In this document: positions 12,374 through 36,242 of the stretch, piece by piece
How positions within the stretch are numbered: the stretch's first letter is position 1
How the letters are laid out: each line of letters opens with the position of its first letter
NCBI RefSeq assembly: GCF_006376685.1
Contig: NZ_VEWL01000013.1
Span: 62,001 to 126,000, forward strand
Direction of reading: 5' to 3'
Origin: Ochrobactrum teleogrylli
GTDB taxonomy: Bacteria; Pseudomonadota; Alphaproteobacteria; Rhizobiales; Rhizobiaceae
DNA length: 64,000 bases
Position numbers and translations under genes: made by a program
Notes under the pieces: generated by a model
Told to the model about the DNA's origin: nothing
What the model saw: the letters and a program-made list of their open reading frames with translations, nothing else
Database searches by the model: none

Positions 12374-12377
12374 TGGA

Positions 12378-12962: not shown

Positions 12963-13002
12963 TCACACATTGATGACAGCTGACGGTGGAAGCGGGTGTT
13001 CT

Positions 13003-13384: not shown

Positions 13385-13488
13385 GGCTTTACCGAATTTC
13401 GAGGAGGAGGTTCGGTCTTCAGGGTTCATCGGCCGCTCGGTAGGGCGACAAAGGATATTGGGAGGGGCTTCGGCCTCAAGGAGGGAAC

Positions 13489-14517: not shown

Positions 14518-14586
14518 CCTTTTGTGTCGGCCATCCGGGATGGTTAAGTTCCGTATGGCCACCGCAAGCTTGGCGAGGAGCATGTC

Positions 14587-17146: not shown

Positions 17147-17147
17147 C

Positions 17148-19144: not shown

Positions 19145-19156
19145 CGGATCGCCATC

Positions 19157-20905: not shown

Positions 20906-21720
20906 ACAGGCTGTTTGGCGGCGGGCGCTGCCTTGACGTAGCTATCGATCACGGCGTCTGCAACGAGCCATCCTTTCTGGATGGGCTGGAAGATATTCAG
21001 TCTGTCGTCAAGGCGTTGGTCGAGGCGGCACCGGATGCGATCCAGATGAATTACGGCCAGTCAGACCTTCTGCAGGACATTCCGGGGAAGGACAAACCGG
21101 CTTTGGTCATGCGTATCGATATGGGCAACCCCTATAATCGCATCCGCCACCGTGACATGTGGGCGGTGTTGCAGAACGAAGCAGAGCCGTTGATCGGTGC
21201 AATCGAGATGGATGCGGCTTGCGTCGTCGTCAACCTCTTCATGCTGCCGGACGAGCCTGAGTTGTTCCGTCAATGTGTGCAGAACATTTCCCGCGTGCGA
21301 GCCGATTGCGACAAATACGGAATGCCGCTTATGATCGAGCCACTGGTCATGCAGCCGGTCACCGAAAAGGGCGGCTATATGGTCGACGGTGATGCCGAAA
21401 AAATTGTGACACTGACTCGGCTTGCGCGCGAAATGGGCGCGGATATCATCAAGGCGGACCCGACGAATAATGTGGAAGATTTCCACCGCGTGGTCGAAGC
21501 CGCACGGTGCCCGGTTCTGGTGCGCGGTGGCGGCAAGGAAGATCTTCGTGCGGTGTTCGACAAATCTGCGAACTTGATGCGGCAAGGTGCGTTGGGCATG
21601 GTCTATGGGCGCAACATTTATCAGCATGCCAATCCCAATGCGGTCGTGCGAGGGTTGATGGCCATTATCCATGGGAATGCGAGCGGGGAAGAGGCATTCG
21701 AACTTTATCTGAAGGGCTAA
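20878..21720 (+). CDS. Class I aldolase of the FbaB/DeoC/LsrF type
   Basis: A 280-aa TIM-barrel aldolase. DVAIDHGV near residue 20 is the DHG motif of the archaeal-type FbaB family. GADIIKADPTNNVEDF near 185 holds the probable Schiff-base lysine, and VLVRGGGKEDL near 215 is the phosphate-binding loop. It probably cleaves the ketose phosphate produced by the preceding dehydrogenase into two smaller units. AAAGGAG lies right before the ATG, which sits inside the end of the dehydrogenase gene. The exact sugar phosphate is unknown. Confidence 0.82.
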   Translation: MRHNSKVRMNRLFGGGRCLDVAIDHGVCNEPSFLDGLEDIQSVVKALVEAAPDAIQMNYGQSDLLQDIPGKDKPALVMRIDMGNPYNRIRHRDMWAVLQNEAEPLIGAIEMDAACVVVNLFMLPDEPELFRQCVQNISRVRADCDKYGMPLMIEPLVMQPVTEKGGYMVDGDAEKIVTLTRLAREMGADIIKADPTNNVEDFHRVVEAARCPVLVRGGGKEDLRAVFDKSANLMRQGALGMVYGRNIYQHANPNAVVRGLMAIIHGNASGEEAFELYLKG

Positions 21721-21753
21721 AGCAGAGATTTTGGACCTTGGGAGGGGTTCTGT

Positions 21754-23313
21754 ATGGGAGAATATCTTTTAGGGCTCGACGCTGGAAACACCGTTATCAA
21801 GGCGGTGATCTTCGACCGAACAGGTAATGAAATTGCGGCTGCTTCCGAGGAGGGACGCAGCCGCATGCCATGCCCAGGCCATGTAGAGCGTGGTCTGGAT
21901 GAGCTATGGACGAACGCACGGCACGTGATCCGTAGCTGTATCGAGCGTGCAGGGATATCGCCGGCTGAAATTATCGCAATCGGTTGCGCAGGCCATGGCA
22001 ACGGACTTTATGCGCTGGACCGGGATGGCGCGCCGCTCATCGGCATCCAGTCGATCGATACGCGTGCGACCGGGCTGGTCGAGCAATGGGCCGCTCGGGG
22101 TGTGGGCGAGCGCACCCAGCCGATCGCGCGCCAGCGCCCCTGGCCATCGCAGACGCCGACCTTGCTTGCATGGTTGAAACGAAACCGGCCGGAGTTGTTC
22201 AGCAACATCGGCACGGTGTTCTTCTCGAAGGATTTCGTCGTCAATCGCCTGACTGGCCAACGCGTCAGCGAGGTTTCGGACATGTCCGGCGCGGGTCTGC
22301 TCAATCTGGCGACGCGCCGCTATGACAAGACCTTGATGGCAGCTTATGGCCTTGAGGATTGTATCGATCTCCTTCCTCCGCTGATCGAAAGCGCTGATAT
22401 CGCGGGTACTGTCACGCGAGAAGTTGCGGCGCAGACGGGGCTCGCCGCGGGGACGCCGGTGGTTGGTGGTCTATTCGACGTTGTCGCTTCGGCGCTCGGC
22501 TCAGGCGTCTCGCGCACCGGTAGCGCCTCAATCATTGCAGGCACCTGGAGCATCAATCAGGTCATTATCGACGGACCGGACCTCAATGAACCGGTATTCA
22601 TGTCCTCGACATTTGATCGTACCCGCTACATGGCGATGGAGAACAGCGCGACCTCGGCCGCCAATCTGGAATGGCTGGTCAAGGAGTTCTTCGAAGGTGA
22701 GAATGCGGACGGTGGTTCACCCTTCGATGCGTGCTGTGCCTTGGCCGGAGCGATCACGCCAGCAGCGGACGATCCGCTTTATCATCCCTACCTCTATGGT
22801 GCCCAGCAAGACGGTCACGCTCGCGCTGGTTTCTACGGTATCGCGGGTTGGCACACCAAAGGACATCTTGTTCGGGCGCTTCTCGAAGGTGTCGCTTTCG
22901 GTCATCGCCAGCATGTCGAGAGGATTCGCAAAGCAGGCGCCGTGTTCAACGAAGCCGTGCTTTCAGGCGGTGGGGCTCGCAGCCTGATATGGCCTCAGAT
23001 ATTCGCGGACATACTCGGCCTTCCTGTATCCGTCAGCCGTTCGCGTGAAACGGGCGCGCTTGGAGCGGCGATTGCCGCCGGAACCGGTGTCGGGCTTTTT
23101 GCCGATTTCAGCGAAGGTGCAGCCGCCATGGTCAAGGCCGAGCGGCATTACCTTCCGGACGCGTCGCTGGAAGGGCATTATGCCCGGCGCTATGCCCTTT
23201 TTAACGATATAGACGAGGCTATGAGACCGATCTGGCGGCGGTTGAATGCGGCACAGTTGGCCGACTATGGAGTGCCGAGAGAAACCAGCTCGCCCTGTTG
23301 CCAGACGGCATGA
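21754..23313 (+). CDS. FGGY-family carbohydrate kinase (xylulose/erythritol-kinase-like)
   Basis: A 519-aa kinase. The phosphate-binding motif is LLGLDAGNTVIKAVIFD (about 5-21). Second-domain motifs include IIAGTWSINQ near 265 and LSGGGARSLIWPQIFADILG near 405. The sequence is closer in style to L-xylulose/erythritol kinases than to glycerol kinase. It completes the logic importer - kinase - FAD dehydrogenase - aldolase. Its last 16 codons overlap, on the opposite strand, the end of the amidohydrolase gene (23265-23313). The tail after YGVP (ending SSPCCQTA) looks like read-through rather than a family C-terminus. Confidence 0.87.
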   Translation: MGEYLLGLDAGNTVIKAVIFDRTGNEIAAASEEGRSRMPCPGHVERGLDELWTNARHVIRSCIERAGISPAEIIAIGCAGHGNGLYALDRDGAPLIGIQSIDTRATGLVEQWAARGVGERTQPIARQRPWPSQTPTLLAWLKRNRPELFSNIGTVFFSKDFVVNRLTGQRVSEVSDMSGAGLLNLATRRYDKTLMAAYGLEDCIDLLPPLIESADIAGTVTREVAAQTGLAAGTPVVGGLFDVVASALGSGVSRTGSASIIAGTWSINQVIIDGPDLNEPVFMSSTFDRTRYMAMENSATSAANLEWLVKEFFEGENADGGSPFDACCALAGAITPAADDPLYHPYLYGAQQDGHARAGFYGIAGWHTKGHLVRALLEGVAFGHRQHVERIRKAGAVFNEAVLSGGGARSLIWPQIFADILGLPVSVSRSRETGALGAAIAAGTGVGLFADFSEGAAAMVKAERHYLPDASLEGHYARRYALFNDIDEAMRPIWRRLNAAQLADYGVPRETSSPCCQTA

Positions 23314-24614
23314 ATTTTTCGCGTATTGGTGATGTCATCCAGCGGGTTGGCATCAAGGACGATCAGATCGGCCCGCTGTCCTTCGGCAATCCGGCCCCTG
23401 TCCGTCAATTTCAGCAGCGCTGCGGCCTGCTCGGTTGCTACGCCGATTGCCTGAACGGGCGCAAATCCTGCATTGACCAGATGTTCCAGCTCGCGATGTT
23501 CGGCGAAGCCGGGTATACGTTCTGGAAAAGCACCTGCATCCGCACCAAAGCCGAATTTTACACCGCCAGCCTCTATCAATTTTGACAAATTGCGGAGGTT
23601 CATTTCCACATCTCGTCGCGCTTTTTGTGCCCGTTCGCTGGTAGCTGTCTTTTCGCGCCAGTCTGCGCTGGAAAACTGGTCTTTCAGTTCAGGGCTTAAA
23701 GCCGATTGCAGGAAGGGGTTTTCCAGCAGCGATGGCTGGTCGGCGAAAATATAAGTAGCTTCGTCCATGTGCACCGTTGGAATATACCATGTACCCTTCT
23801 CGCGAAGAGCATCGATAAACTCCTGATCGATCTCAACGTCGCGAACACCGTGGGCTAGAATATCAGCACCCGCAGCGACCAGCTTTTTGGCGTGGTCGAG
23901 TGTGTAGACATGGGCGGCGACAGCGAAACCCAGTTGGTGTGCTTCGTCGATTGCTGCGCGAAAACAATCCTCGCTCATCGGTTGGATAGGCCCGAATGTG
24001 TCGATCCATAGCTTGATGATATCGATCGGTTGCTGCGCCATTTGGCGAACGACCTGACGCGCTTCTTCCGGTATCTGCGGACGTGGTGACAGACCGTCAG
24101 GGGCAAATATTCCCGCACCTGCTGTCATGAAGGACGCACCGTATTGCGGGTTATTGCGCATGTTTTCGCGGGTTTTGGGCTCGGGCGTGGGGGTCATGCC
24201 GAGCGAAACCACCGTGCCGATACCGTAAGCCTGAAACTGGCGTAACGCTGCATAAGCGTTTTCCGGTGTGAAATTATGTCGTCCGCCCGTCGTGCCCTTG
24301 ATAAGCCCGACATGGGCGTGGTTGCTGGTGAATGCGGGGATCAGATATCGTCCTTGATAATCGACAATCTGCGCATTCTGCAAAGCGGCTGCCGTATTGT
24401 CCGTTTCGCTCAGGACCGCTGAAATAGTTCCATTCTCAATCAGGATCGCGCCGGGGCCAGACATCTCCTGGCCAATCAGCATGCGTATATTGGTCATCGC
24501 CAGTCTTGTGCCGCCACTACCGTAATTGCGTGCGTAGGCGCTGTTCGGAGCTATGCCACCGGCTATAAGTGTACCGATAAGAGTATTCACATTGCGTCGG
24601 GTCAATTTGGTCAT
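23265..24614 (-). CDS. Exported metal-dependent amidohydrolase
   Basis: A 449-aa amidohydrolase-superfamily enzyme. The N-terminus (LTRRNVNTLIGTLIAGGIAPN, ending AYA) looks like a Tat or Sec signal peptide, so it probably acts in the periplasm. The metal site includes NHAHVG near 100, a Lys in IIKLWIDT near 195, the His of VAAHVYTLDHA near 235 and AHGVRDVE near 255, and Asp in FGFGADAGAF near 375. The C-terminal GRIAEGQRADLIVLDANPL is the family hallmark. It is the last of three minus-strand genes. It might release an acid from an amide or lactone that feeds the adjacent island. Substrate unknown. Confidence 0.8.
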   Translation of the reverse strand: MTKLTRRNVNTLIGTLIAGGIAPNSAYARNYGSGGTRLAMTNIRMLIGQEMSGPGAILIENGTISAVLSETDNTAAALQNAQIVDYQGRYLIPAFTSNHAHVGLIKGTTGGRHNFTPENAYAALRQFQAYGIGTVVSLGMTPTPEPKTRENMRNNPQYGASFMTAGAGIFAPDGLSPRPQIPEEARQVVRQMAQQPIDIIKLWIDTFGPIQPMSEDCFRAAIDEAHQLGFAVAAHVYTLDHAKKLVAAGADILAHGVRDVEIDQEFIDALREKGTWYIPTVHMDEATYIFADQPSLLENPFLQSALSPELKDQFSSADWREKTATSERAQKARRDVEMNLRNLSKLIEAGGVKFGFGADAGAFPERIPGFAEHRELEHLVNAGFAPVQAIGVATEQAAALLKLTDRGRIAEGQRADLIVLDANPLDDITNTRKIHAVWQQGELVSLGTP

Positions 24615-24753
24615 CGTGATACCACTCCTGGGTTAGATTGAGAGGTAGGACGCCTTTGGCGAACAATGTTGCTGGCTGTGATGTAGGGACCTCTTGAGAT
24701 GCTGGCCGGAGCCATACCGGGTCTGATATGGCTCCGGTTTGATGGAGCTGATG

Positions 24754-26199
24754 CTAGAATGGATAATGCTGCTTTGGGTCTTCGATTGTGATCCATCGCA
24801 GATTGGTAAAACTGTCTATGCCAGCGGAACCGCCAAATCTGCCATAGCCGCTGTCTTTGACGCCGCCGAAAGGCATTTGTGGTTCATCTCCCACCGTCGG
24901 TCCATTGATATGGCAAATGCCTGCATCAATTTTACGCGCAACCTTGAGCGCGCGGTCAATATTCTGGCTGAATACGGCAGAGGACAGACCATACTCCGTG
25001 TCATTTGCAAGTTCGACGGCATGATTGTCATCGCGGGCGCGCACCACGCAGACGACCGGTCCGAATGACTCCTCGCGAAACAGACGCATTGCGGGTGTAA
25101 CCCCGTCGACAATCGTGGCTGGCATGATTGTTCCCTTTGCCGTGCCCCCAGTTGTGATTGTGGCACCGGATTCTTTGGCATCGGCAACCAGTTCGAGCAC
25201 CCGATCAACTGTGCCTTGCGCGACGACAGCGCCCAGAGCGACTTTCTCGCGTGGATTGCCGCTTGGCAATGCTGAAGCCCGTGCCGTAAACCTGGCCACG
25301 AATTCATCGGCGATTTTTTCATCGACAATGATGCGTTCGGTGGACATGCAGATTTGCCCCTGATTCATGAAGGCACCGAAAATCGCCGCGTTGACGGCAC
25401 CATCAAGATCGGCATCATCCAGTACAACCAATGGCGCCTTGCCTCCCAGTTCCAGAAGCACAGGCTTGAGGTGTTTGGCAGCTTCAAGTGCGATGATTTT
25501 CCCCACCCGCGTGGAACCGGTGAAGTTGATCCGCTTGACGAGAGGATGCGATACAAGCGCGTTGACAACTTCCGGTGCGTCATCAGCGCTGTGGCTGACA
25601 ATATTGAGAACACCTTTTGGCAGACCCGCTTCAATCATTACGTCGCCCAGCATGCGATGCAGTCGCGGGCACATCTCGGACGATTTGAGAACAACCGTAT
25701 TGCCACAGGCAATGGGCATCGCAAAGGCGCGTACCGCCAAAATGACAGGGGCATTCCATGGCGCCATTCCAACCATGACGCCAACAGGTTCGCGTACGGC
25801 CATGGAAAGGGTTCCAGGCTTATCGGATGGAACGATCTCGCCCTTGATCTGGGTTGTTGCGGCGGCGACTTCGCGCAGGATTTTGGCAGCCAACCCGACG
25901 TTGAATCCGATCCACGGGGCAGTCGCCCCGGTTTCAGCGATGCCGCAGGCGGTGAATTCGCCGATCCGGGCTTCGAGAAGATCTGCCGCCTTGAGCAGGA
26001 TGGTGCGGCGCTCGCTCGGGCCGACTTCGGACCATTCTGCGAAGGCTGTTGCCGATGACTTGACGGCCCTGTCGATATCAGGCTGCCGGGCGGCGGGCGC
26101 TACAGTGGCCTCTTCTCCGGTGACGGGGTCAATACGGGTAAAGGTCGCGCTGCCCAGTGCCGGAACATCCTGGCCATCTATCAGCAGTCCAATATTCAT
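24754..26199 (-). CDS. Aldehyde dehydrogenase, aromatic-aldehyde (vanillin/benzaldehyde) type
   Basis: A 481-aa NAD(P)-dependent aldehyde dehydrogenase. The catalytic Glu is in LLELGGKAPLVV (near 250) and the catalytic Cys in NQGQICMSTERI (near 287). VVLKSSEMCP near 170, NFTGSTRVGK near 225 and the C-terminal FGGVKDSGYGRFGG complete the fold. The MSTERI context after the cysteine is typical of vanillin, salicylaldehyde and benzaldehyde dehydrogenases. In the neighbouring decarboxylase pathway it would oxidise the released aldehyde to the acid (MdlD role). The IclR gene lies 32 bases upstream on the same strand. Confidence 0.87.
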   Translation of the reverse strand: MNIGLLIDGQDVPALGSATFTRIDPVTGEEATVAPAARQPDIDRAVKSSATAFAEWSEVGPSERRTILLKAADLLEARIGEFTACGIAETGATAPWIGFNVGLAAKILREVAAATTQIKGEIVPSDKPGTLSMAVREPVGVMVGMAPWNAPVILAVRAFAMPIACGNTVVLKSSEMCPRLHRMLGDVMIEAGLPKGVLNIVSHSADDAPEVVNALVSHPLVKRINFTGSTRVGKIIALEAAKHLKPVLLELGGKAPLVVLDDADLDGAVNAAIFGAFMNQGQICMSTERIIVDEKIADEFVARFTARASALPSGNPREKVALGAVVAQGTVDRVLELVADAKESGATITTGGTAKGTIMPATIVDGVTPAMRLFREESFGPVVCVVRARDDNHAVELANDTEYGLSSAVFSQNIDRALKVARKIDAGICHINGPTVGDEPQMPFGGVKDSGYGRFGGSAGIDSFTNLRWITIEDPKQHYPF

Positions 26200-26231
26200 C
26201 TAATCCTCCCATTTTTGGAATTGAGGTGTGT

Positions 26232-27002
26232 TCAACTGGCGTGGGTTGCCGTTCCGTAGAAGGCGATCTGCACTTTCTTTGCGGCAGCCCGGAGTTTGGC
26301 TGCGAGATCATTGGCGATCAGCGGTTCCATCCGGCTTTTTGAACTGAAGACTGAAAGGCCGCAGATCATTTTGCCGGAGGGGTTAAGGACTGGCACAGCC
26401 AGCGCATAGACATCGGGCTCCCGTTCACCCCGATTAAACGCAAGGCCGGACTCTCGAATATCCTGCAGTTCGGCGATGAGCCCCGACCGGTTTGGCACAA
26501 AGCCCTCATTGATCGCCTTGAGCTCAACGCGCTCAAGATAGGCATCAAGCGCGGTTTCACTTAAATGGGCGAGCCACAATTTGCCATGCGCGCTGGCATA
26601 GGCTTCAAGATGACTGCCAAGCTGTATCGATACGAACATCGGCCGATCCGGCAAGGCACGGGCGATACAAATCGCGCTTTCACCGTCAAAACTGGACGCA
26701 AGTGTTGCTTCGCCAACGTCCTTCGTCAGTTGGTCGAGCACAGGCTGCAAGGCGCTGCGCAAATTGTCTGCTCCGGCGGCGCGTTTTCCCAGTTCGGCCA
26801 GTTTGTAGCCCAGTCGATAATGTCCACGCGAAACCGCCACGAGTGCGCCTGCAGCTTCGAGGGTTTTCAGAAAACGGTGCGCTGTTATCGTATTCAACCC
26901 CAGGCGCGATACGACATCGCTTGATCCAATCTGGAGCAGCTGATCGTCGAATAAGTCCAATATCTGGAAGGCCTTAATAACCGATCCATTGGCCTGGCTC
27001 AT
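26232..27002 (-). CDS. IclR-family transcriptional regulator of the hydroxyacid island
   Basis: A 256-aa regulator. The winged helix is at about 8-70 (VIKAFQILDLFDDQ, then GLNTITAHRFLKTLEAAGAL), followed by an IclR effector domain with YASAHGKLWLAHL near 140 and GLAFNRGEREPDVYALAVPV near 190. The ATG at 27002 is chosen because residues before it in the longer frame are hydrophobic and Cys-rich, unlike IclR proteins, and a GGGGAG lies just upstream. It is divergent from the ThDP-enzyme gene with 161 bases between, and is the natural controller of both arms of the island. Confidence 0.88.
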   Translation of the reverse strand: MSQANGSVIKAFQILDLFDDQLLQIGSSDVVSRLGLNTITAHRFLKTLEAAGALVAVSRGHYRLGYKLAELGKRAAGADNLRSALQPVLDQLTKDVGEATLASSFDGESAICIARALPDRPMFVSIQLGSHLEAYASAHGKLWLAHLSETALDAYLERVELKAINEGFVPNRSGLIAELQDIRESGLAFNRGEREPDVYALAVPVLNPSGKMICGLSVFSSKSRMEPLIANDLAAKLRAAAKKVQIAFYGTATHAS

Positions 27003-27053
27003 GACGCATTTTTCTCCCCACAGAACGCGATATCCGCAAAATTCTAAAGCGTG

Positions 27054-27083
27054 TTGACAAACGAAGCGTAACACACCTATCAT
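27054..27083 (+). promoter_or_regulatory. Promoter of the plus-strand arm of the hydroxyacid island
   Basis: TTGACA (27054-27059), 18 bases, TATCAT (27078-27083). An AT-rich inverted repeat ATTTC (27098-27102) / GAAAT (27110-27114) just downstream of the expected start of transcription is a possible IclR site. Confidence 0.55.
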
Positions 27084-27163
27084 TAATTGCAATATAAATT
27101 TCACATATAGAAATATCTGCGAGAAGCAAAACAAGACGCAAATTCTCGGGAGGAGGAAAACGC

Positions 27164-28882
27164 GTGGATGTTCGTTCCCAGACTAGCCATTCCATGACCG
27201 CGGGAGGTGCGCTCCTTGCGCGTTTGAAAGCTGTTGGCGTGGATTATATTTTTGCCAATTCCGGTACTGACTTTCCTCCGATCATTGAGGGGCTGGCTGA
27301 AGCCAAGGCGAATGGGATCGCTTTGCCGGAGGCGCTTGTTATTCCCCACGAGTCAGCCGCTGTCGCAATGGCGCATGGGTACTATCTCGCATCAGGCCGC
27401 CCTCAAGCGGTGATGGCGCACACCAATGTTGGCCTTGCAAATTGCGCCATGGGCGCCATCAACGCCGCGGCGGAACAAATCCCCATGCTGCTGCTGTCGG
27501 GGCGAACGCCAACGCTTGAAAAGGGTCGTTTCGGTGTACGGACGGTGCCCATCGGTTGGGGGCAGGAGATGCGCGATCAGCATGCGCTGGTCCGTGAGGC
27601 TTCCAAATGGGACTATGAACTCCGCTTTCCGGAGCAGATACCAGATGTCGTTGATCGGGCCTTTGCCATTGCAAATTCCACACCAAGAGGTCCTGTTTAT
27701 GTCAGTGTTCCGCGCGAAGTGTTGTGCGAGGTTGTTGACTATGAAGGCCTGACCGCGCCCAGTCGAGTGGCGTCGTCTGTTTCTGCACTCGATTTTGATG
27801 GCGTGGCCGAGCTGGCGCAAGCCATCCGGGATGCGCGCCGACCGCTATTCGTGGCGCAGAAAGGTGCTGGGACAGAACAGGGTTTTGCTGCCCTTGATCG
27901 CATAGCCCGAAACTGGGCTATCCCCGTCAGCCAGTATTGGGCGGTGCAGCTTGCACTTGCGACTGATCATCCTTTTTCGACCGGGGCGGAAATCGCGCCA
28001 TGGATCAACGATGCTGATCTCATCGTCGTCTTGGATTGTCTGGCGCCGTGGTCTCCTGCAATCCATGAACCGAAAGCAGATTGTCGGATTTTTCAGGTCG
28101 GCGCGGATCCGCTCTACGAAAGGTTCCCATATCGGAATTTTCCGTCGGATCGGACCATTACCAGTGAGGTTGGTCCATTTCTTGTCGCATTGGAAAAGGC
28201 CTTGGAGGAGTTGGGCGTCGAAAGCGGCTATTATATCCAAACCCGCCGCGAAGACGCACAGGGCCGTTGTCGCACGCGACGCGAAAAGGTTCTTTCAAAG
28301 GCTGAGACCGGGCAGGACTCCGGTATAACCAAGGATTATGTCAGCCTCTGCCTTTCGCGAGCCGTACAAAACCACGAAGCGTCGGTTCTGTCGGAGCTCG
28401 GTTGCCCGTTGGAGCCGCTGACATTGAACAGGCATGGAAGCTGGTTTCAGGAACCGCATTCTGGTGGTTTGGGCTGGTCGTTTCCAGCCGCTCTGGGGAT
28501 GAAACTGGCAAAAGCTGACCGACTGGTCGTCGCGACCATGGGCGATGGCTCTTACATGTTTGCCAACCCTGTGGTCTGTCATCAGATAGCGGAAGCCCTC
28601 GGCCTTTCGATCGTGGTTGTGGTGGTAAACAATTCCGAATGGGGTGCGGTGCGCCAGTCGGTCGCCGATCTTTACCCGGAAGGCTATGCAGCGCAGGCCA
28701 ATATCATGCCGCTGACCTCGCTGGGACCGACACCCGATTTTGCGATGGTCGCACAAGCCAGTCGCGCTTTTGCACAGCACGTTAAACGAGCGGAAGATTT
28801 GCCGGCGGCTTTGGAGGCTGCTGTCACCCATGTGTCAGCGAACAAGGGGCTGGCATTGGTTGAGGTCAACGTCAAGCCGTGA
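27164..28882 (+). CDS. Thiamine-diphosphate enzyme, benzoylformate-decarboxylase/acetolactate-synthase superfamily
   Basis: A 572-aa ThDP enzyme. The N-terminal PYR domain carries the catalytic Glu in VIPHESAAVAMAHGYYLA (near 63). The middle domain follows, then the PP domain with the metal-binding MGDGSYMFANPVVCHQ...VVVVVNNSEWG stretch (near 463-500). In mandelate pathways the equivalent gene (mdlC) decarboxylates the 2-oxo acid to the aldehyde. Its N-terminus (FANSGTDFPPIIEG) differs from the GNPGS pattern of known benzoylformate decarboxylases, so the substrate may differ. GTG start with GGAGGAGG in front. Confidence 0.82.
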   Translation: MDVRSQTSHSMTAGGALLARLKAVGVDYIFANSGTDFPPIIEGLAEAKANGIALPEALVIPHESAAVAMAHGYYLASGRPQAVMAHTNVGLANCAMGAINAAAEQIPMLLLSGRTPTLEKGRFGVRTVPIGWGQEMRDQHALVREASKWDYELRFPEQIPDVVDRAFAIANSTPRGPVYVSVPREVLCEVVDYEGLTAPSRVASSVSALDFDGVAELAQAIRDARRPLFVAQKGAGTEQGFAALDRIARNWAIPVSQYWAVQLALATDHPFSTGAEIAPWINDADLIVVLDCLAPWSPAIHEPKADCRIFQVGADPLYERFPYRNFPSDRTITSEVGPFLVALEKALEELGVESGYYIQTRREDAQGRCRTRREKVLSKAETGQDSGITKDYVSLCLSRAVQNHEASVLSELGCPLEPLTLNRHGSWFQEPHSGGLGWSFPAALGMKLAKADRLVVATMGDGSYMFANPVVCHQIAEALGLSIVVVVVNNSEWGAVRQSVADLYPEGYAAQANIMPLTSLGPTPDFAMVAQASRAFAQHVKRAEDLPAALEAAVTHVSANKGLALVEVNVKP

Positions 28883-28926
28883 ATGGTTGTCGAGCATTAT
28901 GACTGCTCGGCACTTGGGAGGAAGCC

Positions 28927-30114
28927 ATGAATATGCTGGTTAAAAGCGATTTAGCAGGCGATACAATTGCGCGGGTAGAGGCTATCCCGGTCTTTCTGCC
29001 GTGCGAGTTGAAAATCGGTGCAATTCATCGCTCGACTGAATTGTCTGCCGTGGTGGTTGAGATTGAAACCGCCGACGGTGCCATTGGACACGGTTTTACG
29101 GCGATTACCGATGAAGAGGTGGTGAGCGCTGCCGTCAACAGCCTTGTTGCACCCAATCTTGTCGGCATGCCTGTAATGTCGCGTGAGGCCGTGGCAGAAC
29201 GCCTTTATTGGTTGCTCAGCCCTCGTGGGCAAACCGGTTATGCAAGTCACGTCGCCTCCGCAATCGACATTGCACTGTGGGATATAGCGGGAAAGAAACT
29301 GCAGATGCCGGTTTGGCGTCTGTTGGGTGGTGCGCGCAGCAAGGTCGAAACCTATGTAACGTTTGGTTTCGCCGCGCTTGATCGGGAGGAACTCGCGGAA
29401 GCGGCAGCTCACCTCTCCCGGCAGGGGCAGAAACGGTTGAAAATGGTCGTTGGCCATCATGCGCTGGCGCGTCGTGATAGTGGTCGTTCGCTTGATGCGG
29501 TCATTCGCGAAGATGAAGCCCGGATTCGCGCAGTGCGCCTGGCGGTTGGTGACGATGTCGACCTCTTCATTGATGCCAATTGCAGTCTGGACAAATTTCA
29601 CGCGCAGCTTTTGGCAGAACGGATTGCCGATTGCGATATTCGGTTCTTCGAGGAGCCCCTGCGTGGAAACGATGTTGGAAGTCTGGCGGACTTTCGCCGC
29701 AAGATTAGAATTCCGGTAGCTGCTGGCCAGAACGAGGGACAGCTGTTCCGGTATCGTGATCTTCTCATGCATCAGGCTGTTGACGTGTTGCAACCCAATG
29801 TCTGTATCGGTGGCGGCTATACGATGGGGGCCAAGATTGCTGGCATGGCGCAGGCCTTTAACACCACAATCGATAATGGTGGAGCATTTCCTTTTCACAA
29901 TATGCATTTGCACGCAGCCATGGCCAATGGCGGTCTGGTTGAATGGCACCTCGTCTCGGTTGAACTGTGCAAAGGGGTCTTTGAAGGACTGACAACTTTG
30001 GGACAAGGCGAGATTGCTCTGCCGGAAACACCGGGTCTGGGCTTTTCGATGTCGCCTGAACGCAAAGCGGAACTGTTGAAAATGCCGACGTCGATGGGAC
30101 GTGGAAAAGGATGA
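28927..30114 (+). CDS. Enolase-superfamily protein, mandelate-racemase-like, with altered catalytic site
   Basis: A 395-aa mandelate racemase/muconate lactonizing enzyme-like protein: capping domain 1-130, then a barrel. The metal ligands appear as Asp of FIDANCSLD (near 218) and Glu of FFEEPLRG (near 245). Compared by eye with Pseudomonas mandelate racemase, the second lysine of the KxK motif is Val (LKMVVG, near 178), the third-ligand Glu is Gln (AAGQNEG), the Asp of the Asp-His dyad is Asn (LQPNVCIGGG) and its His partner is not obvious (DNGG). It may therefore be a dehydratase, a racemase with a different base, or have another role. GGGAGG precedes the start. Confidence 0.78.
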   Translation: MNMLVKSDLAGDTIARVEAIPVFLPCELKIGAIHRSTELSAVVVEIETADGAIGHGFTAITDEEVVSAAVNSLVAPNLVGMPVMSREAVAERLYWLLSPRGQTGYASHVASAIDIALWDIAGKKLQMPVWRLLGGARSKVETYVTFGFAALDREELAEAAAHLSRQGQKRLKMVVGHHALARRDSGRSLDAVIREDEARIRAVRLAVGDDVDLFIDANCSLDKFHAQLLAERIADCDIRFFEEPLRGNDVGSLADFRRKIRIPVAAGQNEGQLFRYRDLLMHQAVDVLQPNVCIGGGYTMGAKIAGMAQAFNTTIDNGGAFPFHNMHLHAAMANGGLVEWHLVSVELCKGVFEGLTTLGQGEIALPETPGLGFSMSPERKAELLKMPTSMGRGKG

Positions 30115-30183
30115 TTGTACCTCTGCTTCATCTGTTGGGATGAGCAGGAATACTGATGGAAAGCAAACCACTGGGAGGATGGA

Positions 30184-31176
30184 ATGCGTTATTCGACTGC
30201 ATTTTTAGCATTAATCGCGGCTATGTCGTTTTCGAACATCGCACAGGCGGAATGGAAACCGACACAGGATCTTGAATTCGTGGCAGGTGCGGGGCCGGGC
30301 GGTGGAACCGATCTGTTTGCGCGCACAATCCAGTCCATAATTCAGAAGTATGATTTGGCGGATGTGGATGTCGTCGTGACGAACAAGCCAGCCGGTGCTG
30401 GAAGCGAAGCCTTCATGTATGGTGTCACCGGTGGCAAGGATCCTTATAAGCTATTGTTCGGAAACAATAATGCGTGGCTGCTGCCAATGAAGGCAAGGGT
30501 CGGCTATTCGATGGACGATCTGACACCAGTCGCCAGCATGGCCAGAGATGTTTTCCTGCTCTGGGCCAACAAAGATAGCGCCTACAAGACCTATCAGGAT
30601 GTGGCGAACGCCGCTAAAGATAAGTCCGTACCTTTGAAGTCTGGTGGCACCCAGTCCAAAGACGGTGATGAGATTCTCGTGCGCATGATTGCGGCAGAGG
30701 CAGGCGGCAATTTCATTTACATTCCTTTCAAGAGTGGAAGTGAAGCCGCTGTACAGCTGGCCGGCGGGCATATCGACATCAATACCAATAACCCGTCGGA
30801 AAATGTGGGACAGTGGGCTGGTGGTGCGGTGAGGCCAATCTGCGTTTTTGCAGACGCCAAGCTTGAGGACACGAACAAAGTGTATGACGGGCAGGGCTTT
30901 GGAGATATTCCAACCTGTGCAAGTCAGGGCAGCAAAATACAATCCTACGAGATTCCGCGAACGATCTTTTCCGCAGCGAAATTAACCAACGAGCAACAGG
31001 CCTATTTTCGCGATCTTCTGTCGAAAGTGCGCGAGAAGCCGGAATGGCAAGCCTATCTCCAGAAAACCATGCAGGGCGATCTGTTTTTACAGGGGTCTGA
31101 ACTTCAGACTTATATCGATCAAGATAGTGCGAGAGCCAGAGCGGTGTTTGAGCGTGAAGGTTGGCTTGTCAAATAG
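30184..31176 (+). CDS. Tripartite tricarboxylate transporter receptor (TctC type)
   Basis: A 330-aa periplasmic receptor. Residues 1-22 are a signal peptide ending AQA. The TctC/Bug pattern is clear: DLEFVAGAGPGGGTDLFART near 32, NKPAGAGSEAFMY near 72 and a conserved SGSEAAVQLAGGHIDI segment near 190. Such receptors capture carboxylates for a secondary transporter formed by TctB and TctA, encoded next. In this island the ligand is probably the hydroxyacid degraded by the neighbouring enzymes. Confidence 0.86.
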   Translation: MRYSTAFLALIAAMSFSNIAQAEWKPTQDLEFVAGAGPGGGTDLFARTIQSIIQKYDLADVDVVVTNKPAGAGSEAFMYGVTGGKDPYKLLFGNNNAWLLPMKARVGYSMDDLTPVASMARDVFLLWANKDSAYKTYQDVANAAKDKSVPLKSGGTQSKDGDEILVRMIAAEAGGNFIYIPFKSGSEAAVQLAGGHIDINTNNPSENVGQWAGGAVRPICVFADAKLEDTNKVYDGQGFGDIPTCASQGSKIQSYEIPRTIFSAAKLTNEQQAYFRDLLSKVREKPEWQAYLQKTMQGDLFLQGSELQTYIDQDSARARAVFEREGWLVK

Positions 31177-31221
31177 GGCAAGCTTTGTGCGGTCGCCTTC
31201 AGGCCGCGCTGTCTACTGGAA

Positions 31222-31737
31222 ATGGGAGAGACCGATATGGACGATACCAGGAAGGTATTGCTAACGCGCTTTGCTGCCGAAATGTTTGTGGCAGCACTGC
31301 TCGTCGCTATAGGCGTACTCGTTGCTTACGGTGCCGCCGGTCTGGGTTATGGCTGGACATCCAGCGGCCCGGACTCAGGCTACGTACCATTCTATCTTGG
31401 ATGGGGAATAGGGCTCGCCGGTATGGGGATCGCGATTTCGAGCTATCTCGAGCGTGAGCGTTATAGAGCCAGAGTTTTTCTGACACTCGATGGCGCACGC
31501 GATGTCCTGTCGTTCTTCCTGCCCATCATAGGACTGGTCGTTGCCAGTTATCTTCTGGGCATCTACTGCGCGGGCCTGATCTATCTGTTTTTGACTATCC
31601 GGTTTCAAGCCAAGGCTTCGACTTTGAATGCGCTTTTGATCGCTCTTCTCGCGGTTGGTCTTTTCTATGTGATGTTTGAGTTCTGGTTCCGTATCCCGCT
31701 ATTGACGGGGCCGATCGAACCTCTTCTCGGATTGTGA
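31222..31737 (+). CDS. Tripartite tricarboxylate transporter small membrane subunit (TctB type)
   Basis: A 171-aa protein with four hydrophobic segments (about 14-38, 52-72, 85-107 and 120-150), the usual TctB topology. It has an SSGPDSGYVPFYLGWGIG stretch between the first two, the TctB hallmark. It sits between tctC and tctA genes as in most such operons. Its stop is immediately followed by the tctA start region. Confidence 0.83.
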   Translation: MGETDMDDTRKVLLTRFAAEMFVAALLVAIGVLVAYGAAGLGYGWTSSGPDSGYVPFYLGWGIGLAGMGIAISSYLERERYRARVFLTLDGARDVLSFFLPIIGLVVASYLLGIYCAGLIYLFLTIRFQAKASTLNALLIALLAVGLFYVMFEFWFRIPLLTGPIEPLLGL

Positions 31738-31747
31738 GGTGGAAATG

Positions 31748-33250
31748 ATGGAAAACCTCGAAAATCTTCTGCACGGCTTTTCGATCGCCATCAGCGGCTA
31801 TCATATATTCCTCATGATTGCAGGCGTCATGATGGGGCTTCTCGTCGGCGTTTTGCCGGGGTTGGGTGCGCCCAATGGCGTGACGCTTTTGTTGCCTTTG
31901 ACATTCTCGATGGAACCCGTCTCGGCTATCATCCTGCTAACCAGTATGTACTGGGGCGCGCTGTTTGGTGGGTCGACCACATCGATCTTGTTCAACATCC
32001 CCGGCGAACCATCTTCGGTGGCAACCACATTCGATGGTCATCCCATGGCCAAGCGCGGTGAGACTACCGAAGCATTGACCTATGCATTTTCCTCCGCAGG
32101 TATCGGTGCGTTGTGCGGGGTGGCGCTGATCACGGTTTTATCGAGCTGGATTGCTTCCTTCGCGCTCAGCTTTTCACCGGCGGAATATTTCGCCGTCTAT
32201 TTTCTCGCTTTTTCCTGCTTTATCGGGTTCGGTTCCGGGTCGATGCTGAAGAGCGCTGCAGTAATTGCGCTTGGTTTTGCACTCACATCGGTCGGAATGG
32301 ATACCGTTTCAGGTGAAGTGCGGTTGACCTATGGCTTTTCTGAACTGCTGCGCGGGATCAGCTTCCTCGTTGCCGTGATAGGCCTCTTCGGCATCGGAGA
32401 GCTGTTGCTGACGATGGAGGAAGACCTGAAATTCGATTCCGTGAAATCAAAGCTTGAAATCCGTCGCGTTTTCAAAACGATTGCAACGCTGCCGCGATAT
32501 TGGGCAACATATCTGCGTTCCCTCGCCATTGGCTGTTGGATGGGAATAACACCGGGAGGGCCAACGGCGGCTTCCTTCATGAGCTATGGTGTCGCGCAAC
32601 GCTCCGGCAAAAAGAAATTCGGAACCGGTATTCCAGAAGGTATCATCGCGCCGGAAACCGCCGATCATGCCGCCGGTTCCTCGGCAATATTGCCGATGCT
32701 GGCACTTGGAATTCCAGGTTCAGCGACGGCTGCCGTCATGATGGGGGGGCTGTTGATCTGGGGGCTCAATCCCGGTCCGATGCTGTTTGTCCAGAATACG
32801 GACTTCGTCTGGGGTTTGATTGCCTCAATGTATCTCGGCAATGTCATTGGTGTCATCTTCGCCCTGGCAACGGTTCCCTTCTTTGCTGTCATTCTACGGG
32901 TCCGTTTTGCCATCGTGGCACCGCTGATCATGTTTGTATGTTTGATTGGTGCCTATACGGTGGCGAGCGCATCATTCGATATGGTGTTGCTGGCGATATT
33001 CGGCGTGGTAGGTTATCTCTTCAAGAAGCTGGACTACCCCATCGCTCCGTTTGTGCTCGCCATGGTGCTCGGTCAGAAAGCAGAGGACGCCTTTCGTCAG
33101 TCCTTGATGATCTCCCAAGGGTCACTTTCAGTCTTCTTTTCAAATTGGCTCGTCGGGAGTGTTATGACCGCCGGGATTGCGATGATTGCCATTCCTGCAC
33201 TCATCGCTTTGTGGCGCCGCCGCCGACCGTCACTCGTAGAAGAAGTTTGA
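31748..33250 (+). CDS. Tripartite tricarboxylate transporter large membrane subunit (TctA type)
   Basis: A 500-aa integral membrane protein with about twelve hydrophobic segments. The two TctA repeats are recognisable: VGVLPGLGAPNGVTLLLPLTFSM near residue 30 and WMGITPGGPTAASFMSYGVAQ near 265, with a conserved FNIPGEPSSVATTFDGHPMAK near 80. It forms the transport channel with TctB. Starts at GTG 31739 or ATG 31745 are also possible; 31748 has the best spacing to GAGGT. Expressed with the receptor upstream and the dehydrogenase downstream. Confidence 0.87.
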   Translation: MENLENLLHGFSIAISGYHIFLMIAGVMMGLLVGVLPGLGAPNGVTLLLPLTFSMEPVSAIILLTSMYWGALFGGSTTSILFNIPGEPSSVATTFDGHPMAKRGETTEALTYAFSSAGIGALCGVALITVLSSWIASFALSFSPAEYFAVYFLAFSCFIGFGSGSMLKSAAVIALGFALTSVGMDTVSGEVRLTYGFSELLRGISFLVAVIGLFGIGELLLTMEEDLKFDSVKSKLEIRRVFKTIATLPRYWATYLRSLAIGCWMGITPGGPTAASFMSYGVAQRSGKKKFGTGIPEGIIAPETADHAAGSSAILPMLALGIPGSATAAVMMGGLLIWGLNPGPMLFVQNTDFVWGLIASMYLGNVIGVIFALATVPFFAVILRVRFAIVAPLIMFVCLIGAYTVASASFDMVLLAIFGVVGYLFKKLDYPIAPFVLAMVLGQKAEDAFRQSLMISQGSLSVFFSNWLVGSVMTAGIAMIAIPALIALWRRRRPSLVEEV

Positions 33251-33259
33251 GGACGCGCC

Positions 33260-34459
33260 ATGGGTTTGATCGGCGTTTCACACACACGTCAGGCGGCTCA
33301 ACGGCGCCTGCCTCGCATAGCGTTCGATTTTATCGATGGCGGTGCCGGGCGCGAGAATGCGTTGCGTCGGGCCGAAGCTGCATTCAATGACGTGGAACTC
33401 GTGCCGAGTGTTCTACGGGGTCATACTGAATTCGACACGAGCTGCCGCCTTTTTGGTACGGAACAGTCTTTGCCTTTTGGTATTCCACCGATAGGGCTTG
33501 CCGATCTTGTGTGGCCAAAAACGGATATAGCCTTGGCAGCGACTGCCTATCGGCTTGGCATTCCATACGTACTTTCGACGGCGGCATCGACAACCATTGA
33601 AGATATCACCAAGGTTAACCCGGATGCCTGGTTCCAGCTCTATGTGGGCGAAGATCAGTCTATCGTGGACAATCTGATTGATCGTGCGGAATCTGCCGGT
33701 ATCAAAAAACTTGTCGTCACGGTTGATATACCGGCTCCCGGCAGAAGGCTGAGGGATTTGGCGAATGGTTTTACATTGCCCTTGCGTCCCAGTCTTGGAA
33801 GCATTTTCAGCTTTGCGACCCACCCAGCCTGGTGTCTTGCCACGTTGCGTGCGGGGTCACCGAAAGTTGCTAATTTTGCGAACTATGCATCGGGGTCGCA
33901 GTCCGGCACATCGCTGGCGCGATTGATGGCCCGCCAGACTTCGGGCAGGCTCGACTGGACAATTCTGGGCGACCTGCGGCGACGCTGGAAAGGAACATTC
34001 ATCGTCAAAGGTGTGTTGAATCCGTCCGACGCCCGAAGAATTGTCGACACAGGGGCGGATGCACTGATTGTTTCCAGCCATGGAGGACGGCAGTTCGAAG
34101 CGGCACCGGCGCCATTAGCTGCGTTGCCGGAAATTCGCGCAGCCGTGGGACGACAGATCCCGGTGCTAATGGATGGCGGTATCCGCTCAGGGACCGATAT
34201 CATTTCTGCACTCGATCGCGGAGCCGATTTCGTTTTTATTGGCCGTCCTTTTCTTTACGCCGTCGCCGCAGCTGGTGTTGCCAAGGGGCCGGATCAGATG
34301 GCTGAATTGCTGCGTGCCGAATTGATCAATACGATGGGGCAGCTCGGATTGGGGTCCATTTCAGAGTTGACTGACCGCTCCCAACATCAGGCCACAACTT
34401 CCCGCCAAACGAAGTGTTCGCCGCCCAGCTCCACGCAATCAAGATGTGGCGCTACATAA
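33260..34459 (+). CDS. FMN-dependent alpha-hydroxy-acid dehydrogenase, (S)-mandelate-dehydrogenase-like
   Basis: A 399-aa TIM-barrel flavoprotein of the lactate/mandelate dehydrogenase family. Family motifs are IAFDFIDGGAGREN near 20, YVLSTAASTTIEDI near 97, WFQLYVG near 117 and the active-site VSSHGGRQFEAAPAPL near 273, which replaces the usual SNHGGRQLD. An internal segment HPAWCLATLRAGSPKVANF (near 187) matches the mandelate-dehydrogenase type. It would oxidise the (S)-hydroxyacid to the 2-oxo acid for the ThDP enzyme. The last 24 codons run antisense inside the ABC ATPase gene and read as low-complexity Ser/Gln/Thr sequence, suggesting the native stop was lost. Confidence 0.84.
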   Translation: MGLIGVSHTRQAAQRRLPRIAFDFIDGGAGRENALRRAEAAFNDVELVPSVLRGHTEFDTSCRLFGTEQSLPFGIPPIGLADLVWPKTDIALAATAYRLGIPYVLSTAASTTIEDITKVNPDAWFQLYVGEDQSIVDNLIDRAESAGIKKLVVTVDIPAPGRRLRDLANGFTLPLRPSLGSIFSFATHPAWCLATLRAGSPKVANFANYASGSQSGTSLARLMARQTSGRLDWTILGDLRRRWKGTFIVKGVLNPSDARRIVDTGADALIVSSHGGRQFEAAPAPLAALPEIRAAVGRQIPVLMDGGIRSGTDIISALDRGADFVFIGRPFLYAVAAAGVAKGPDQMAELLRAELINTMGQLGLGSISELTDRSQHQATTSRQTKCSPPSSTQSRCGAT

Positions 34460-36189: not shown

Positions 36190-36242
36190 ATTTGTGCTCG
36201 CTGAGTAATGGAAGAGGGCGGCAGGGACCGCCCCCTTGTGCC

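What the first reader, a model, noticed from the sequence alone, without database searches (positions are those of the whole stretch)
23265..34459. Mandelate-like island with transporter and divergent regulator
Four enzymes match the four steps of mandelate degradation by family: racemase-like, FMN (S)-hydroxyacid dehydrogenase with a mandelate-type internal segment, ThDP decarboxylase-like and aromatic-type aldehyde dehydrogenase. They sit with a TctCBA carboxylate importer and an IclR regulator in a divergent layout. TTT importers are not part of the classical Pseudomonas mdl cluster. The exported amidohydrolase could supply the acid. The combination looks like a distinct 2-hydroxyacid pathway.
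Basis: partly seen in the sequence, partly recalled or inferred. Interest (0 to 1): 0.7.

Follow-up and report, generated by a model that had tools for sequence, protein, structure and literature searches.

The report
Aromatic hydroxyacid pathway tied to AMDase
A soil-type bacterium carries a block of genes that most likely imports an aromatic hydroxyacid resembling mandelate and turns it into a benzoate-type acid; a marine relative carries nearly the same set beside arylmalonate decarboxylase, an enzyme used in biocatalysis whose natural substrate is unknown, and so suggests what its natural job could be.

Summary
The island is real. Window 23269-34365 is one 84%-identical block in Ochrobactrum sp. 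RH2CCR150, with different flanks. Three of the four enzyme calls hold in outline. The aldehyde dehydrogenase is nearest to solved vanillin and salicylaldehyde dehydrogenases. The FMN enzyme keeps most mandelate-dehydrogenase residues. The ThDP enzyme belongs to unassigned family NF006203, not benzoylformate decarboxylase; some relatives sit beside MdlB-clade FMN dehydrogenases, others beside PobA or pca genes, so aryl-2-oxoacid decarboxylase is the best reading. The fourth call fails: the 'racemase' lacks the three catalytic residues of mandelate racemase, as do 19 subgroup members aligned, although the subgroup often sits near TctCBA importers. A predicted IclR operator, ATTTC-N7-GAAAT, lies at 27098 and recurs before ThDP genes in other genera. 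Four of the five closest racemase-like relatives outside Ochrobactrum sit in true arylmalonate decarboxylase (AMDase) loci; Ponticoccus alexandrii holds TctCBA, AMDase, ALDH, ThDP, racemase-like and FMN genes in one divergent cluster. Best reading: an aromatic 2-hydroxyacid pathway, a new variant of the mandelate route. Boldest: AMDase naturally feeds it by decarboxylating 2-hydroxy-2-arylmalonates. No substrate was tested.

The parts
23265..24614 (-). exported-type amidohydrolase (role in the pathway unproven)
   Evidence: Pfam Amidohydro_1 77.7 bits; found in 2 of 80 ThDP loci, L009 (92%) and L010 (91%)
24754..26199 (-). aromatic aldehyde dehydrogenase
   Evidence: nearest solved chains: vanillin DH 9ihb 621 bits, salicylaldehyde DH 6qhn 601, NahF 515, 4-hydroxybenzaldehyde DH 379; none of the 25 NCBIfam models shown reaches its cut-off
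26232..27002 (-). IclR-family regulator, nearest to the PcaR/PobR/PcaU type (ORF runs to 27134; probable start ATG 27002)
   Evidence: TIGR02431 135 bits, below its cut-off of 285; relatives in 33 of 80 ThDP loci
27054..27083 (+). sigma70-like promoter TTGACA-18-TATCAT facing the ThDP gene
   Evidence: 11 of 12 consensus bases
27098..27114 (.). predicted IclR operator ATTTCACATATAGAAAT (ATTTC-N7-GAAAT)
   Evidence: exact in 18 of 28 loci with a divergent neighbouring IclR, 0 of 2531 background stretches, 1 of 2800 shuffled spacers; in the own genome the only site with at most one mismatch to the 17-base consensus
27164..28882 (+). ThDP enzyme of family NF006203 (PRK08327), proposed aryl-2-oxoacid decarboxylase
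   Evidence: 662 bits, cut-off 456; contexts with FMN_dh, ALDH, PobA or pca genes
28927..30114 (+). enolase-superfamily protein of a subgroup without the mandelate racemase residues (KMV, GQNE, QPN, NGG); reaction unknown
   Evidence: MR_MLE domains; positions 174, 291 and 318 are V, N and G
30184..31176 (+). TctC-type periplasmic receptor
   Evidence: Pfam TctC 61.7 bits; weak to solved receptors, best 25hk 60 bits
31222..31737 (+). TctB small membrane subunit
   Evidence: Pfam TctB 40.6 bits
31739..33250 (+). TctA large membrane subunit
   Evidence: Pfam TctA 453.7 bits
33260..34459 (+). FMN-dependent (S)-2-hydroxyacid dehydrogenase type enzyme (homology with L009 ends at 34365)
   Evidence: best solved chain MdlB 6bfg 250 bits; Y131, R165, H274, R277 and G81 kept, Y26 is F

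Best explanation
The block is a peripheral pathway for an aromatic 2-hydroxyacid (mandelate, or more likely a ring-hydroxylated or methoxylated mandelate). TctCBA imports the acid. The FMN dehydrogenase oxidises the (S)-2-hydroxyacid to the aryl-2-oxoacid. The NF006203 ThDP enzyme decarboxylates that to the aryl aldehyde. The aromatic aldehyde dehydrogenase makes the benzoate-type acid, which can enter PobA and the pca pathway encoded elsewhere in the genome. The enolase-superfamily protein acts on the imported acid before oxidation; an (R)-to-(S) conversion by a non-standard mechanism is the simplest job, but its chemistry is unknown. The IclR protein represses from ATTTC-N7-GAAAT, just downstream of the ThDP promoter, until an aromatic effector releases it. 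Shown here: gene order, families, residues, the motif's conservation, recurrence of the parts. Inferred: substrate, direction and order of steps, that the motif is the IclR operator, the sign of regulation, the role of the racemase-like protein.
For: ALDH: the best five solved relatives at 1e-90 are vanillin, salicylaldehyde and 4-hydroxybenzaldehyde dehydrogenases; 9 of all 10 are named as aromatic aldehyde enzymes. FMN_dh next to ThDP in 8 of 80 loci besides L009, six in the same direction at 3-191 bp, two convergent; six of these eight form a supported clade with MdlB (100/99). ThDP in aromatic-acid contexts: pca genes in 6 of 80 and pobA in 15 of 80 loci. In 20 of the 42 ThDP-positive genomes of the order, PcaB is within 6 kb of ThDP in 4 and PobA within 5 kb in 5; I chose these 20 after and they include every genome where such neighbours had been seen, so the fair base is 42, with 0.14 and 0.10 expected (p 1e-5 and 7e-8). 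Named records: Chelatococcus CO-6 pcaF, pcaB, ALDH, TRAP, ThDP in one direction; Roseivivax IclR/ThDP/TRAP/pobA-pcaGHC; Paroceanicella FMN_dh-MarR divergent from ALDH-ThDP; Lutibaculum L044 IclR, ThDP, ALDH, PobA with an exact motif. FMN_dh relatives: 8 of 12 non-own genomes are ThDP-positive against 41 of 296 (p 2e-5). The own genome has PcaB and PobA.
Against: No substrate is known for any gene here. The ThDP enzyme has no equivalent of BFD His281 (recalled numbering). Foldseek ranks a 4-hydroxybenzoylformate decarboxylase first (5e-31), but acetohydroxyacid synthases follow at 3e-29 and glyoxylate carboligase has a higher TM-score (0.79 against 0.74), so the fold does not decide. ThDP-adjacent FMN enzymes are not one clade, and the window's is not in the MdlB clade. 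The flank test in the order gave 7 of 46 against 0 of 20 controls, only p 0.09. FMN_dh was near none of those 46 at the thresholds used, which only 22 of the 46 ThDP genes themselves passed. 21 of 80 loci hold ThDP with a ChrR-like cupin, and 20 of these 21 have no FMN_dh. Relatedness of loci and genome size were not controlled for. The window TctC is far from every solved receptor. No NCBIfam model shown for the ALDH or the FMN_dh reaches its cut-off.
Confidence: 0.7

Rival explanations
1. The ThDP enzyme is a C-C lyase or carboligase on aromatic alpha-hydroxyketones (for example 2,4'-dihydroxyacetophenone-type compounds from lignin), not a 2-oxoacid decarboxylase; the FMN enzyme supplies or removes a side intermediate.
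For: A ChrR-like cupin, called 2,4'-dihydroxyacetophenone dioxygenase family in two NCBI records, lies near ThDP in 21 of 80 loci, usually with an SDR and ALDH. The fold is about as close to acetohydroxyacid synthase and glyoxylate carboligase as to benzoylformate decarboxylase.
Against: L009, Ponticoccus and Paroceanicella show no such cupin in the stretches seen, nor does the window's ORF list, but they have an FMN 2-hydroxyacid dehydrogenase, whose product would be a 2-oxoacid. Six ThDP-adjacent FMN enzymes are in the MdlB clade.
Confidence: 0.18
2. The island handles an aliphatic 2-hydroxyacid or a sugar acid (lactate-, tartrate- or galactarate-type); the aromatic look is coincidental.
For: Among the solved chains closest to the enolase-superfamily protein are sugar-acid enzymes (that 4ggb is a galactarolactone cycloisomerase is recalled). 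In a more distant branch of the subgroup, L124 has an MmgE/PrpD-like gene (by eye) and a tartrate dehydrogenase gene. Citrate is the commonest proven TTT ligand (passages of PMC5812351).
Against: The aldehyde dehydrogenase is of the vanillin/salicylaldehyde type, pobA and pca genes are neighbours in related ThDP loci, and the regulator is nearest to the PcaR/PobR type.
Confidence: 0.12
3. Classical mandelate pathway with a true mandelate racemase and a benzoylformate decarboxylase.
For: Domain families match.
Against: Racemase catalytic residues absent in the window protein and the 19 subgroup members aligned; ThDP enzyme far below the BFD family cut-off and best in another family.
Confidence: 0.05

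Closest known systems
Pseudomonas putida mdl (mandelate) pathway: MdlA, MdlB, MdlC, MdlD (composition recalled)
   Same: Same order of chemical steps proposed: hydroxyacid oxidation by an FMN enzyme, ThDP decarboxylation, aldehyde oxidation; the FMN enzyme keeps most MdlB catalytic residues.
   Different: ThDP enzyme of another family (NF006203), aldehyde dehydrogenase of the vanillin/salicylaldehyde type, racemase-like protein without racemase residues, TTT importer, IclR regulator.
Arylmalonate decarboxylase (AMDase) loci with MR/MLE and TTT genes (Maimanakos et al. 2016, PMC4996985; abstract and passages read)
   Same: Four of the five closest MR-type relatives outside Ochrobactrum sit in loci with a true AMDase; three of these four also have TTT genes; Ponticoccus carries AMDase with the window's pathway genes.
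   Different: The window's genome has no AMDase match at 1e-5. The passages read do not connect AMDase loci with FMN dehydrogenase, ThDP and aldehyde dehydrogenase genes; the rest of the text and the supplements were not read.
4-hydroxybenzoylformate decarboxylases 7orx and 6qsi
   Same: 7orx is first in the structure comparison, and the product would fit the pobA/pca neighbourhoods.
   Different: Only 21-22% identity, and acetohydroxyacid synthases score almost as well.
NF006203 (PRK08327) thiamine pyrophosphate-requiring protein
   Same: The window enzyme is a member at 662 bits, cut-off 456.
   Different: The family name gives no function; no paper in the library holds the term PRK08327.

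Membership tests
Mandelate racemase (MdlA-type) | second lysine of the KxK motif (K166, recalled) | tested here: not met
   position 174 is V, T, Q or L in 20 of 20 rows of the subgroup, never K or R; K or R in 21 of the 30 relatives
Mandelate racemase (MdlA-type) | His297-Asp270 pair (recalled) | tested here: not met
   position 291 is N in 20 of 20 rows, position 318 is G in 19 and A in 1; the rows were chosen as close relatives
Mandelate racemase (MdlA-type) | enolase-superfamily domains and first two metal ligands | tested here: met
   Pfam MR_MLE N and C domains; D216 and E242 in 20 of 20, third ligand position Q268
Benzoylformate decarboxylase (NF005485) | family score above the curated cut-off | tested here: not met
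   141.5 bits against 493; NF006203 662 against 456
Benzoylformate decarboxylase (NF005485) | ThDP glutamate, active-site His70, GDG...NN motif (numbering recalled) | tested here: met
   E63, H86 (His70), D461 and N490 invariant in 40 sequences; H86 in 80 of 80 relatives
Benzoylformate decarboxylase (NF005485) | Ser26 and His281 (recalled) | tested here: not met
   T35, and alanine at the 281 position, in 80 of 80 relatives (alignment uncertain around 281)
(S)-mandelate dehydrogenase MdlB | Tyr131, Arg165, His274, Arg277 (recalled) | tested here: met
   all present in the window protein
(S)-mandelate dehydrogenase MdlB | Tyr26 (recalled) | tested here: not met
   F24 in the window, F in 3 of 9 relatives; Ponticoccus also has FDF at this place
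(S)-mandelate dehydrogenase MdlB | same clade as MdlB | tested here: not met
   window falls in a neighbouring assemblage (97/99), not with MdlB (midpoint root)
Aromatic aldehyde dehydrogenase (vanillin/salicylaldehyde type) | closest solved relatives | tested here: met
   621 and 601 bits
Aromatic aldehyde dehydrogenase (vanillin/salicylaldehyde type) | activity on aromatic aldehydes | not testable with these tools
   needs an assay
Tripartite tricarboxylate transporter | TctC, TctB and TctA genes together | tested here: met
   Pfam
AMDase locus | AMDase gene beside MR-type and TTT genes | tested here: not met
   no AMDase in the window's genome at 1e-5

The most novel reading that the evidence does not exclude
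The window is the AMDase-free form of the natural AMDase pathway. In Ponticoccus-type clusters TctCBA imports a 2-hydroxy-2-arylmalonate (aryltartronate), AMDase decarboxylates it to the (R)-arylglycolate, the enolase-superfamily protein converts (R) to (S) by a mechanism without the mandelate racemase residues, and FMN dehydrogenase, ThDP decarboxylase and aromatic aldehyde dehydrogenase finish the job. This would name the missing natural substrate class of AMDase and explain why its strict (R)-preference goes with a racemase-like gene.
Probability: 0.3. Interest if true: 0.8.

Novelty: new variant of a known kind. Interest (0 to 1): 0.6.

Why it matters
It gives a ThDP family without an assigned function (NF006203) a concrete, testable role, and a conserved motif by which to follow it. 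It marks off a subgroup of the enolase superfamily that is labelled mandelate racemase yet lacks the racemase residues. Through Ponticoccus it places arylmalonate decarboxylase, whose natural substrate is stated to be unidentified (PMC4996985), in a readable catabolic cluster, so that an old question can be tested with five purified enzymes.

Tried and rejected
Insertion of the MR-TctCBA-FMN_dh part into an older amidohydrolase-ALDH-IclR-ThDP locus was my first reading of L010 (note). Rejected: L010 still matches the first 44 bases of the MR-type gene, and L009 against L010 shows about 5.57 kb missing, so a deletion in L010 fits better. Plasmid origin: no plasmid record matches the block by megablast. 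A wider regulon: in the own genome the motif with at most one mismatch occurs once; of the two sites with two mismatches I read only the starts of the ORFs beside them, and none looked like a pathway gene. With up to three mismatches there were 13 sites against 3 for the backwards control, so further weak sites are not excluded. Out-of-sample motif check: of three further loci with a relative IclR, L147 has one mismatch at a fitting place, L160 and L266 two, so support outside the first set is modest. TRAP receptor of L016: its nearest solved chain is 7nqg (479 bits), but its ligand was not found, so it is not used. Paper searches without a useful hit; listings only; led to PMC4996985. In PMC2443382 one sentence was seen that predicts 4-hydroxymandelate catabolism in Azorhizobium, without genes.

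Structure: the ThDP model (mean pLDDT 81.8, residues 115-149 below 50) was compared with the PDB and does not decide between decarboxylase and carboligase. The model of the racemase-like protein, from the window and L009 only, had not finished at the last look and plays no part.
Full report
What is there. Nine ORFs lie at the stated coordinates with the stated Pfam domains. ALDH, amidohydrolase and IclR run leftwards; the ThDP enzyme, the MR_MLE protein, TctC, TctB, TctA and the FMN dehydrogenase run rightwards with short gaps. The window lies in a 4.76-Mb genome. The closest ThDP genes found outside it, 91% identical, are in Ochrobactrum sp. RH2CCR150 and a Rhizobiales isolate (the tool may leave out very near records); Ochrobactrum belongs to Brucellaceae.

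Borders and history. Against L009 (that Ochrobactrum) 23269-34365 aligns without a break at 84.5%, while the rest of L009, about 6 kb on the left and 4.5 kb on the right, does not align with the window. In L010 (Rhizobiales bacterium AFS001111) only 23275-28970 aligns, that is, up to 44 bases inside the MR-type gene, and L009 and L010 share the sequence that follows the FMN gene in L009. The simplest account is a deletion of about 5.57 kb in L010, which took most of the MR-type gene, TctCBA and the FMN gene. So amidohydrolase, ALDH, IclR and ThDP can persist without the rest.

The ThDP enzyme. It scores 662 bits against NF006203 (cut-off 456) and 141 against benzoylformate decarboxylase NF005485 (cut-off 493). 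In the order 42 of 297 genomes have a member. The histidine that matches BFD His70, the glutamate E63, D461 and N490 of the GDG...NN motif and a set T35, F37, Q134, M136, Q429 and H432 are invariant in 40 sequences. Ser26 and His281 of BFD (numbering recalled) have no equivalent, with the warning that the alignment is weak around 281. A model from 40 sequences matches a 4-hydroxybenzoylformate decarboxylase first, but acetohydroxyacid synthases and glyoxylate carboligase are close behind, so the fold does not settle the reaction.

Context says more. I fetched 80 loci of ThDP relatives with up to 10 kb on each side (the best 80 of 455 relatives matched). Tallies over all 80: ALDH 38, IclR 33, TRAP large subunit 29, MarR 22, Liv-type receptor 21, cupin 21, SDR 20, TRAP receptor 16, pobA 15 (12 Thalassospira and one Rhodospirillales MAG at 5.8-9.3 kb, L044 and L079 at 1.1-1.6 kb), FMN_dh 9, PanE-like 9, pca genes 6, amidohydrolase 2, TctC 2, MR-type 1. 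The complete window set is in 1 of 80, L009. In eight loci besides L009 FMN_dh is the next gene found after ThDP, six in the same direction (3-191 bp) and two convergent (9 and 27 bp). A second sample came from the order search: 46 loci besides the window, 7 with pca or pobA genes within about 10 kb, against 0 of 20 control stretches 70 kb away on the same contigs; Fisher's test gives p 0.09. The thresholds were strict: only 22 of the 46 ThDP genes themselves passed them. I then searched PcaB and PobA by family in 20 of the 42 ThDP-positive genomes. The 20 were picked after and include all genomes where such neighbours had been seen. PcaB is in 20 of 20 and within 6 kb of ThDP in 4; PobA in 19 of 20 and within 5 kb in 5. 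On the fair base of 42 genomes, 0.14 and 0.10 would be expected for random places (assuming 5-Mb genomes; p 1e-5 and 7e-8); the smaller values used a base of 20 and are withdrawn.

Named examples. Of 23 plasmid records with a ThDP relative I looked at eight, picked by me. Three have an annotated alpha-hydroxy acid oxidase nearby: Ponticoccus, Paroceanicella, where it and MarR are divergent from ALDH and ThDP, and Sagittula stellata, with TAXI-TRAP, ALDH and an amidohydrolase-family gene in between. Two have pca genes: Chelatococcus sp. CO-6 with pcaF, pcaB, ALDH, TRAP and ThDP in one direction, Roseivivax THAF197b with IclR, ThDP, TRAP, pobA, pcaG, pcaH and pcaC together. Two, Sulfitobacter and Ensifer, have the cupin, SDR, ALDH and ABC genes and no FMN_dh, and the Pseudosulfitobacter stretch shows no pathway neighbour. 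The gene table of that collection is incomplete. The own genome has PcaB and PobA elsewhere and no NF005485 match at 1e-80.

The aldehyde dehydrogenase. Its best solved relatives act, by their names, on aromatic aldehydes: vanillin dehydrogenase 621 bits, salicylaldehyde dehydrogenases 601 and 515, 4-hydroxybenzaldehyde dehydrogenase 379; of the 10 chains at 1e-90 one is named only aldehyde dehydrogenase. None of the 25 NCBIfam models shown reaches its cut-off.

The FMN enzyme. Best solved relative is MdlB (250 bits). Tyr131, Arg165, His274, Arg277 and Gly81 (MdlB numbering, recalled) are kept, Tyr26 is Phe. In a tree of 29 rows six ThDP-adjacent FMN enzymes form a clade with MdlB (100/99), two of them with MdlB itself (100/98). 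The window enzyme lies in a neighbouring assemblage with those of L020 and L064 (also beside ThDP), L210 and others. Of 12 non-own genomes in the order with a close relative, 8 are ThDP-positive, against 41 of 296 overall. Genome size and relatedness were not controlled for.

The racemase-like protein. Relatives were drawn from the class, the phylum and the order. In 21 of 30 relatives of a first alignment the usual K or R, D and (20 of 21) H are present at the three catalytic places; the window and the other nine, among them the eight closest, have V, T, Q or L, then N, then G or A. In a second alignment of the window and 19 relatives chosen as members of that subgroup, position 174 is V 13, T 5, Q 1, L 1; 291 is N in 20; 318 is G in 19 and A in 1; K172, D216, E242, Q268 and E339 are in 20 of 20. 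It is therefore not a mandelate racemase by the known mechanism. In the order 9 non-own genomes have a match at 1e-70, 5 of them ThDP-positive (p 0.003). TctA or TctC lies within about 10 kb in 12 of 17 loci and in Ponticoccus, but not in L125 or Burkholderia arboris L258: 13 of 20 looked at besides the window and L009. Two of the seven misses lie on contigs of 5 kb or less. No matched control was run.

The AMDase link. Among 17 other genomes with an MR-type gene, an AMDase of 299-340 bits lies within 3.3 kb of it in three, G001, G305 and G893. AMDase-family matches over the cut-off occur in 14 of the 17, but the others score 140 bits or less and none lies within 10 kb of the MR-type gene on the same contig. 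Two of the three AMDases were compared with solved ones (217 and 197 bits); the L119 enzyme shows GTSMSFYRG and SCGGL in the alignment. Of the five loci whose MR-type protein is 54-59% identical to the window's, besides L009, four have AMDase (L210, L235, L257, L119; not L258). In L210 the MR-type gene is followed by FMN_dh; in L119 and L235 none was detected. In Ponticoccus alexandrii C31, plasmid p-SCP4, one divergent cluster holds TctC, TctB, TctA, AMDase, ALDH (70% to the window) and ThDP (57%) on one strand, and the MR-type gene (57%), an alpha-hydroxy acid oxidase (49%) and MarR on the other. Maimanakos et al. 2016 (PMC4996985; abstract and passages read) report MR/MLE genes in 61% of the available AMDase sequences and frequent TTT genes, and state that the natural substrate remains to be identified and that the conserved enantiopreference is puzzling. 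No hydroxylase is annotated among the genes from ThDP to MarR in Ponticoccus (a molybdopterin-dependent oxidoreductase lies some 4.5 kb beyond MarR), so if AMDase feeds the FMN step its substrate should already carry the hydroxyl group: a 2-hydroxy-2-arylmalonate. This is inference, and it leaves open what a protein without the racemase residues would do.

Regulation. Between IclR and ThDP the window has TTGACA-18-TATCAT (27054-27083) and, just downstream, ATTTCACATATAGAAAT (27098-27114). ATTTC-N7-GAAAT was first noticed in the window, L013 and L018. It is exact before ThDP in 18 of 28 loci with a divergent neighbouring IclR (at most one mismatch in 23), exact in 4 of 5 loci where IclR lies about 3.3 kb away, and exact in 0 of 47 loci without a related IclR (two with one mismatch); controls: 0 of 2531 background stretches exact, 23 with one mismatch; 1 of 2800 shuffled spacers exact. 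Fourteen of the 18 are Thalassospira or a Rhodospirillales MAG, so events are fewer than loci; exact sites also occur in Ochrobactrum, a Rhodobacteraceae genome, Nitratireductor and Lutibaculum. In three further loci the best sites had one, two and two mismatches. Its place suggests repression.

Judgement. The pathway reading is right in outline and now better founded for an aromatic acid; the racemase label is wrong in mechanism; the decarboxylase belongs to a different family from the classical one. The imported acid and the role of the amidohydrolase are unproven. The unexpected gain is the AMDase connection.

Noticed in passing
window 11030-23313: To the left lies a polyol-type set, read by eye: FAD-linked oxidase, antiterminator-like gene, ABC sugar importer, GlpD-like dehydrogenase 19157-20905, aldolase 20878-21720 and FGGY-type kinase 21754-23313. 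It does not align with the L009 or L010 stretches.
   Followed up: no
window 34387-38802: To the right, on the minus strand, an Opp-type ABC ATPase, an FmdA-type amidase and an OppA-type receptor. An FmdA relative (66%) also lies next to a ThDP gene in L073.
   Followed up: partly
L036, L260, L264 and other ThDP loci: A ChrR-like cupin, annotated as 2,4'-dihydroxyacetophenone dioxygenase family in L260 and L264, lies near ThDP in 21 of 80 loci, usually with an SDR, ALDH and a Liv-type ABC importer: perhaps a second pathway served by the same ThDP family.
   Followed up: partly
L124, L241, L243: A more distant branch of the MR-type subgroup sits with further MR-type genes; in L124 also with an MmgE/PrpD-like (by eye) and a tartrate dehydrogenase (TIGR02089) gene.
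   Followed up: partly
L016:6971-8020: The TRAP receptor beside ThDP and FMN_dh is very close to the solved receptor 7nqg (479 bits); its ligand could hint at the substrate.
   Followed up: partly
L015, L016, L038, L039, L055, L059, L062, L063, L082: A ketopantoate-reductase-like gene (PanE) recurs near ThDP on the other strand, 0.1-5.4 kb away (9 of 80 loci).
   Followed up: no
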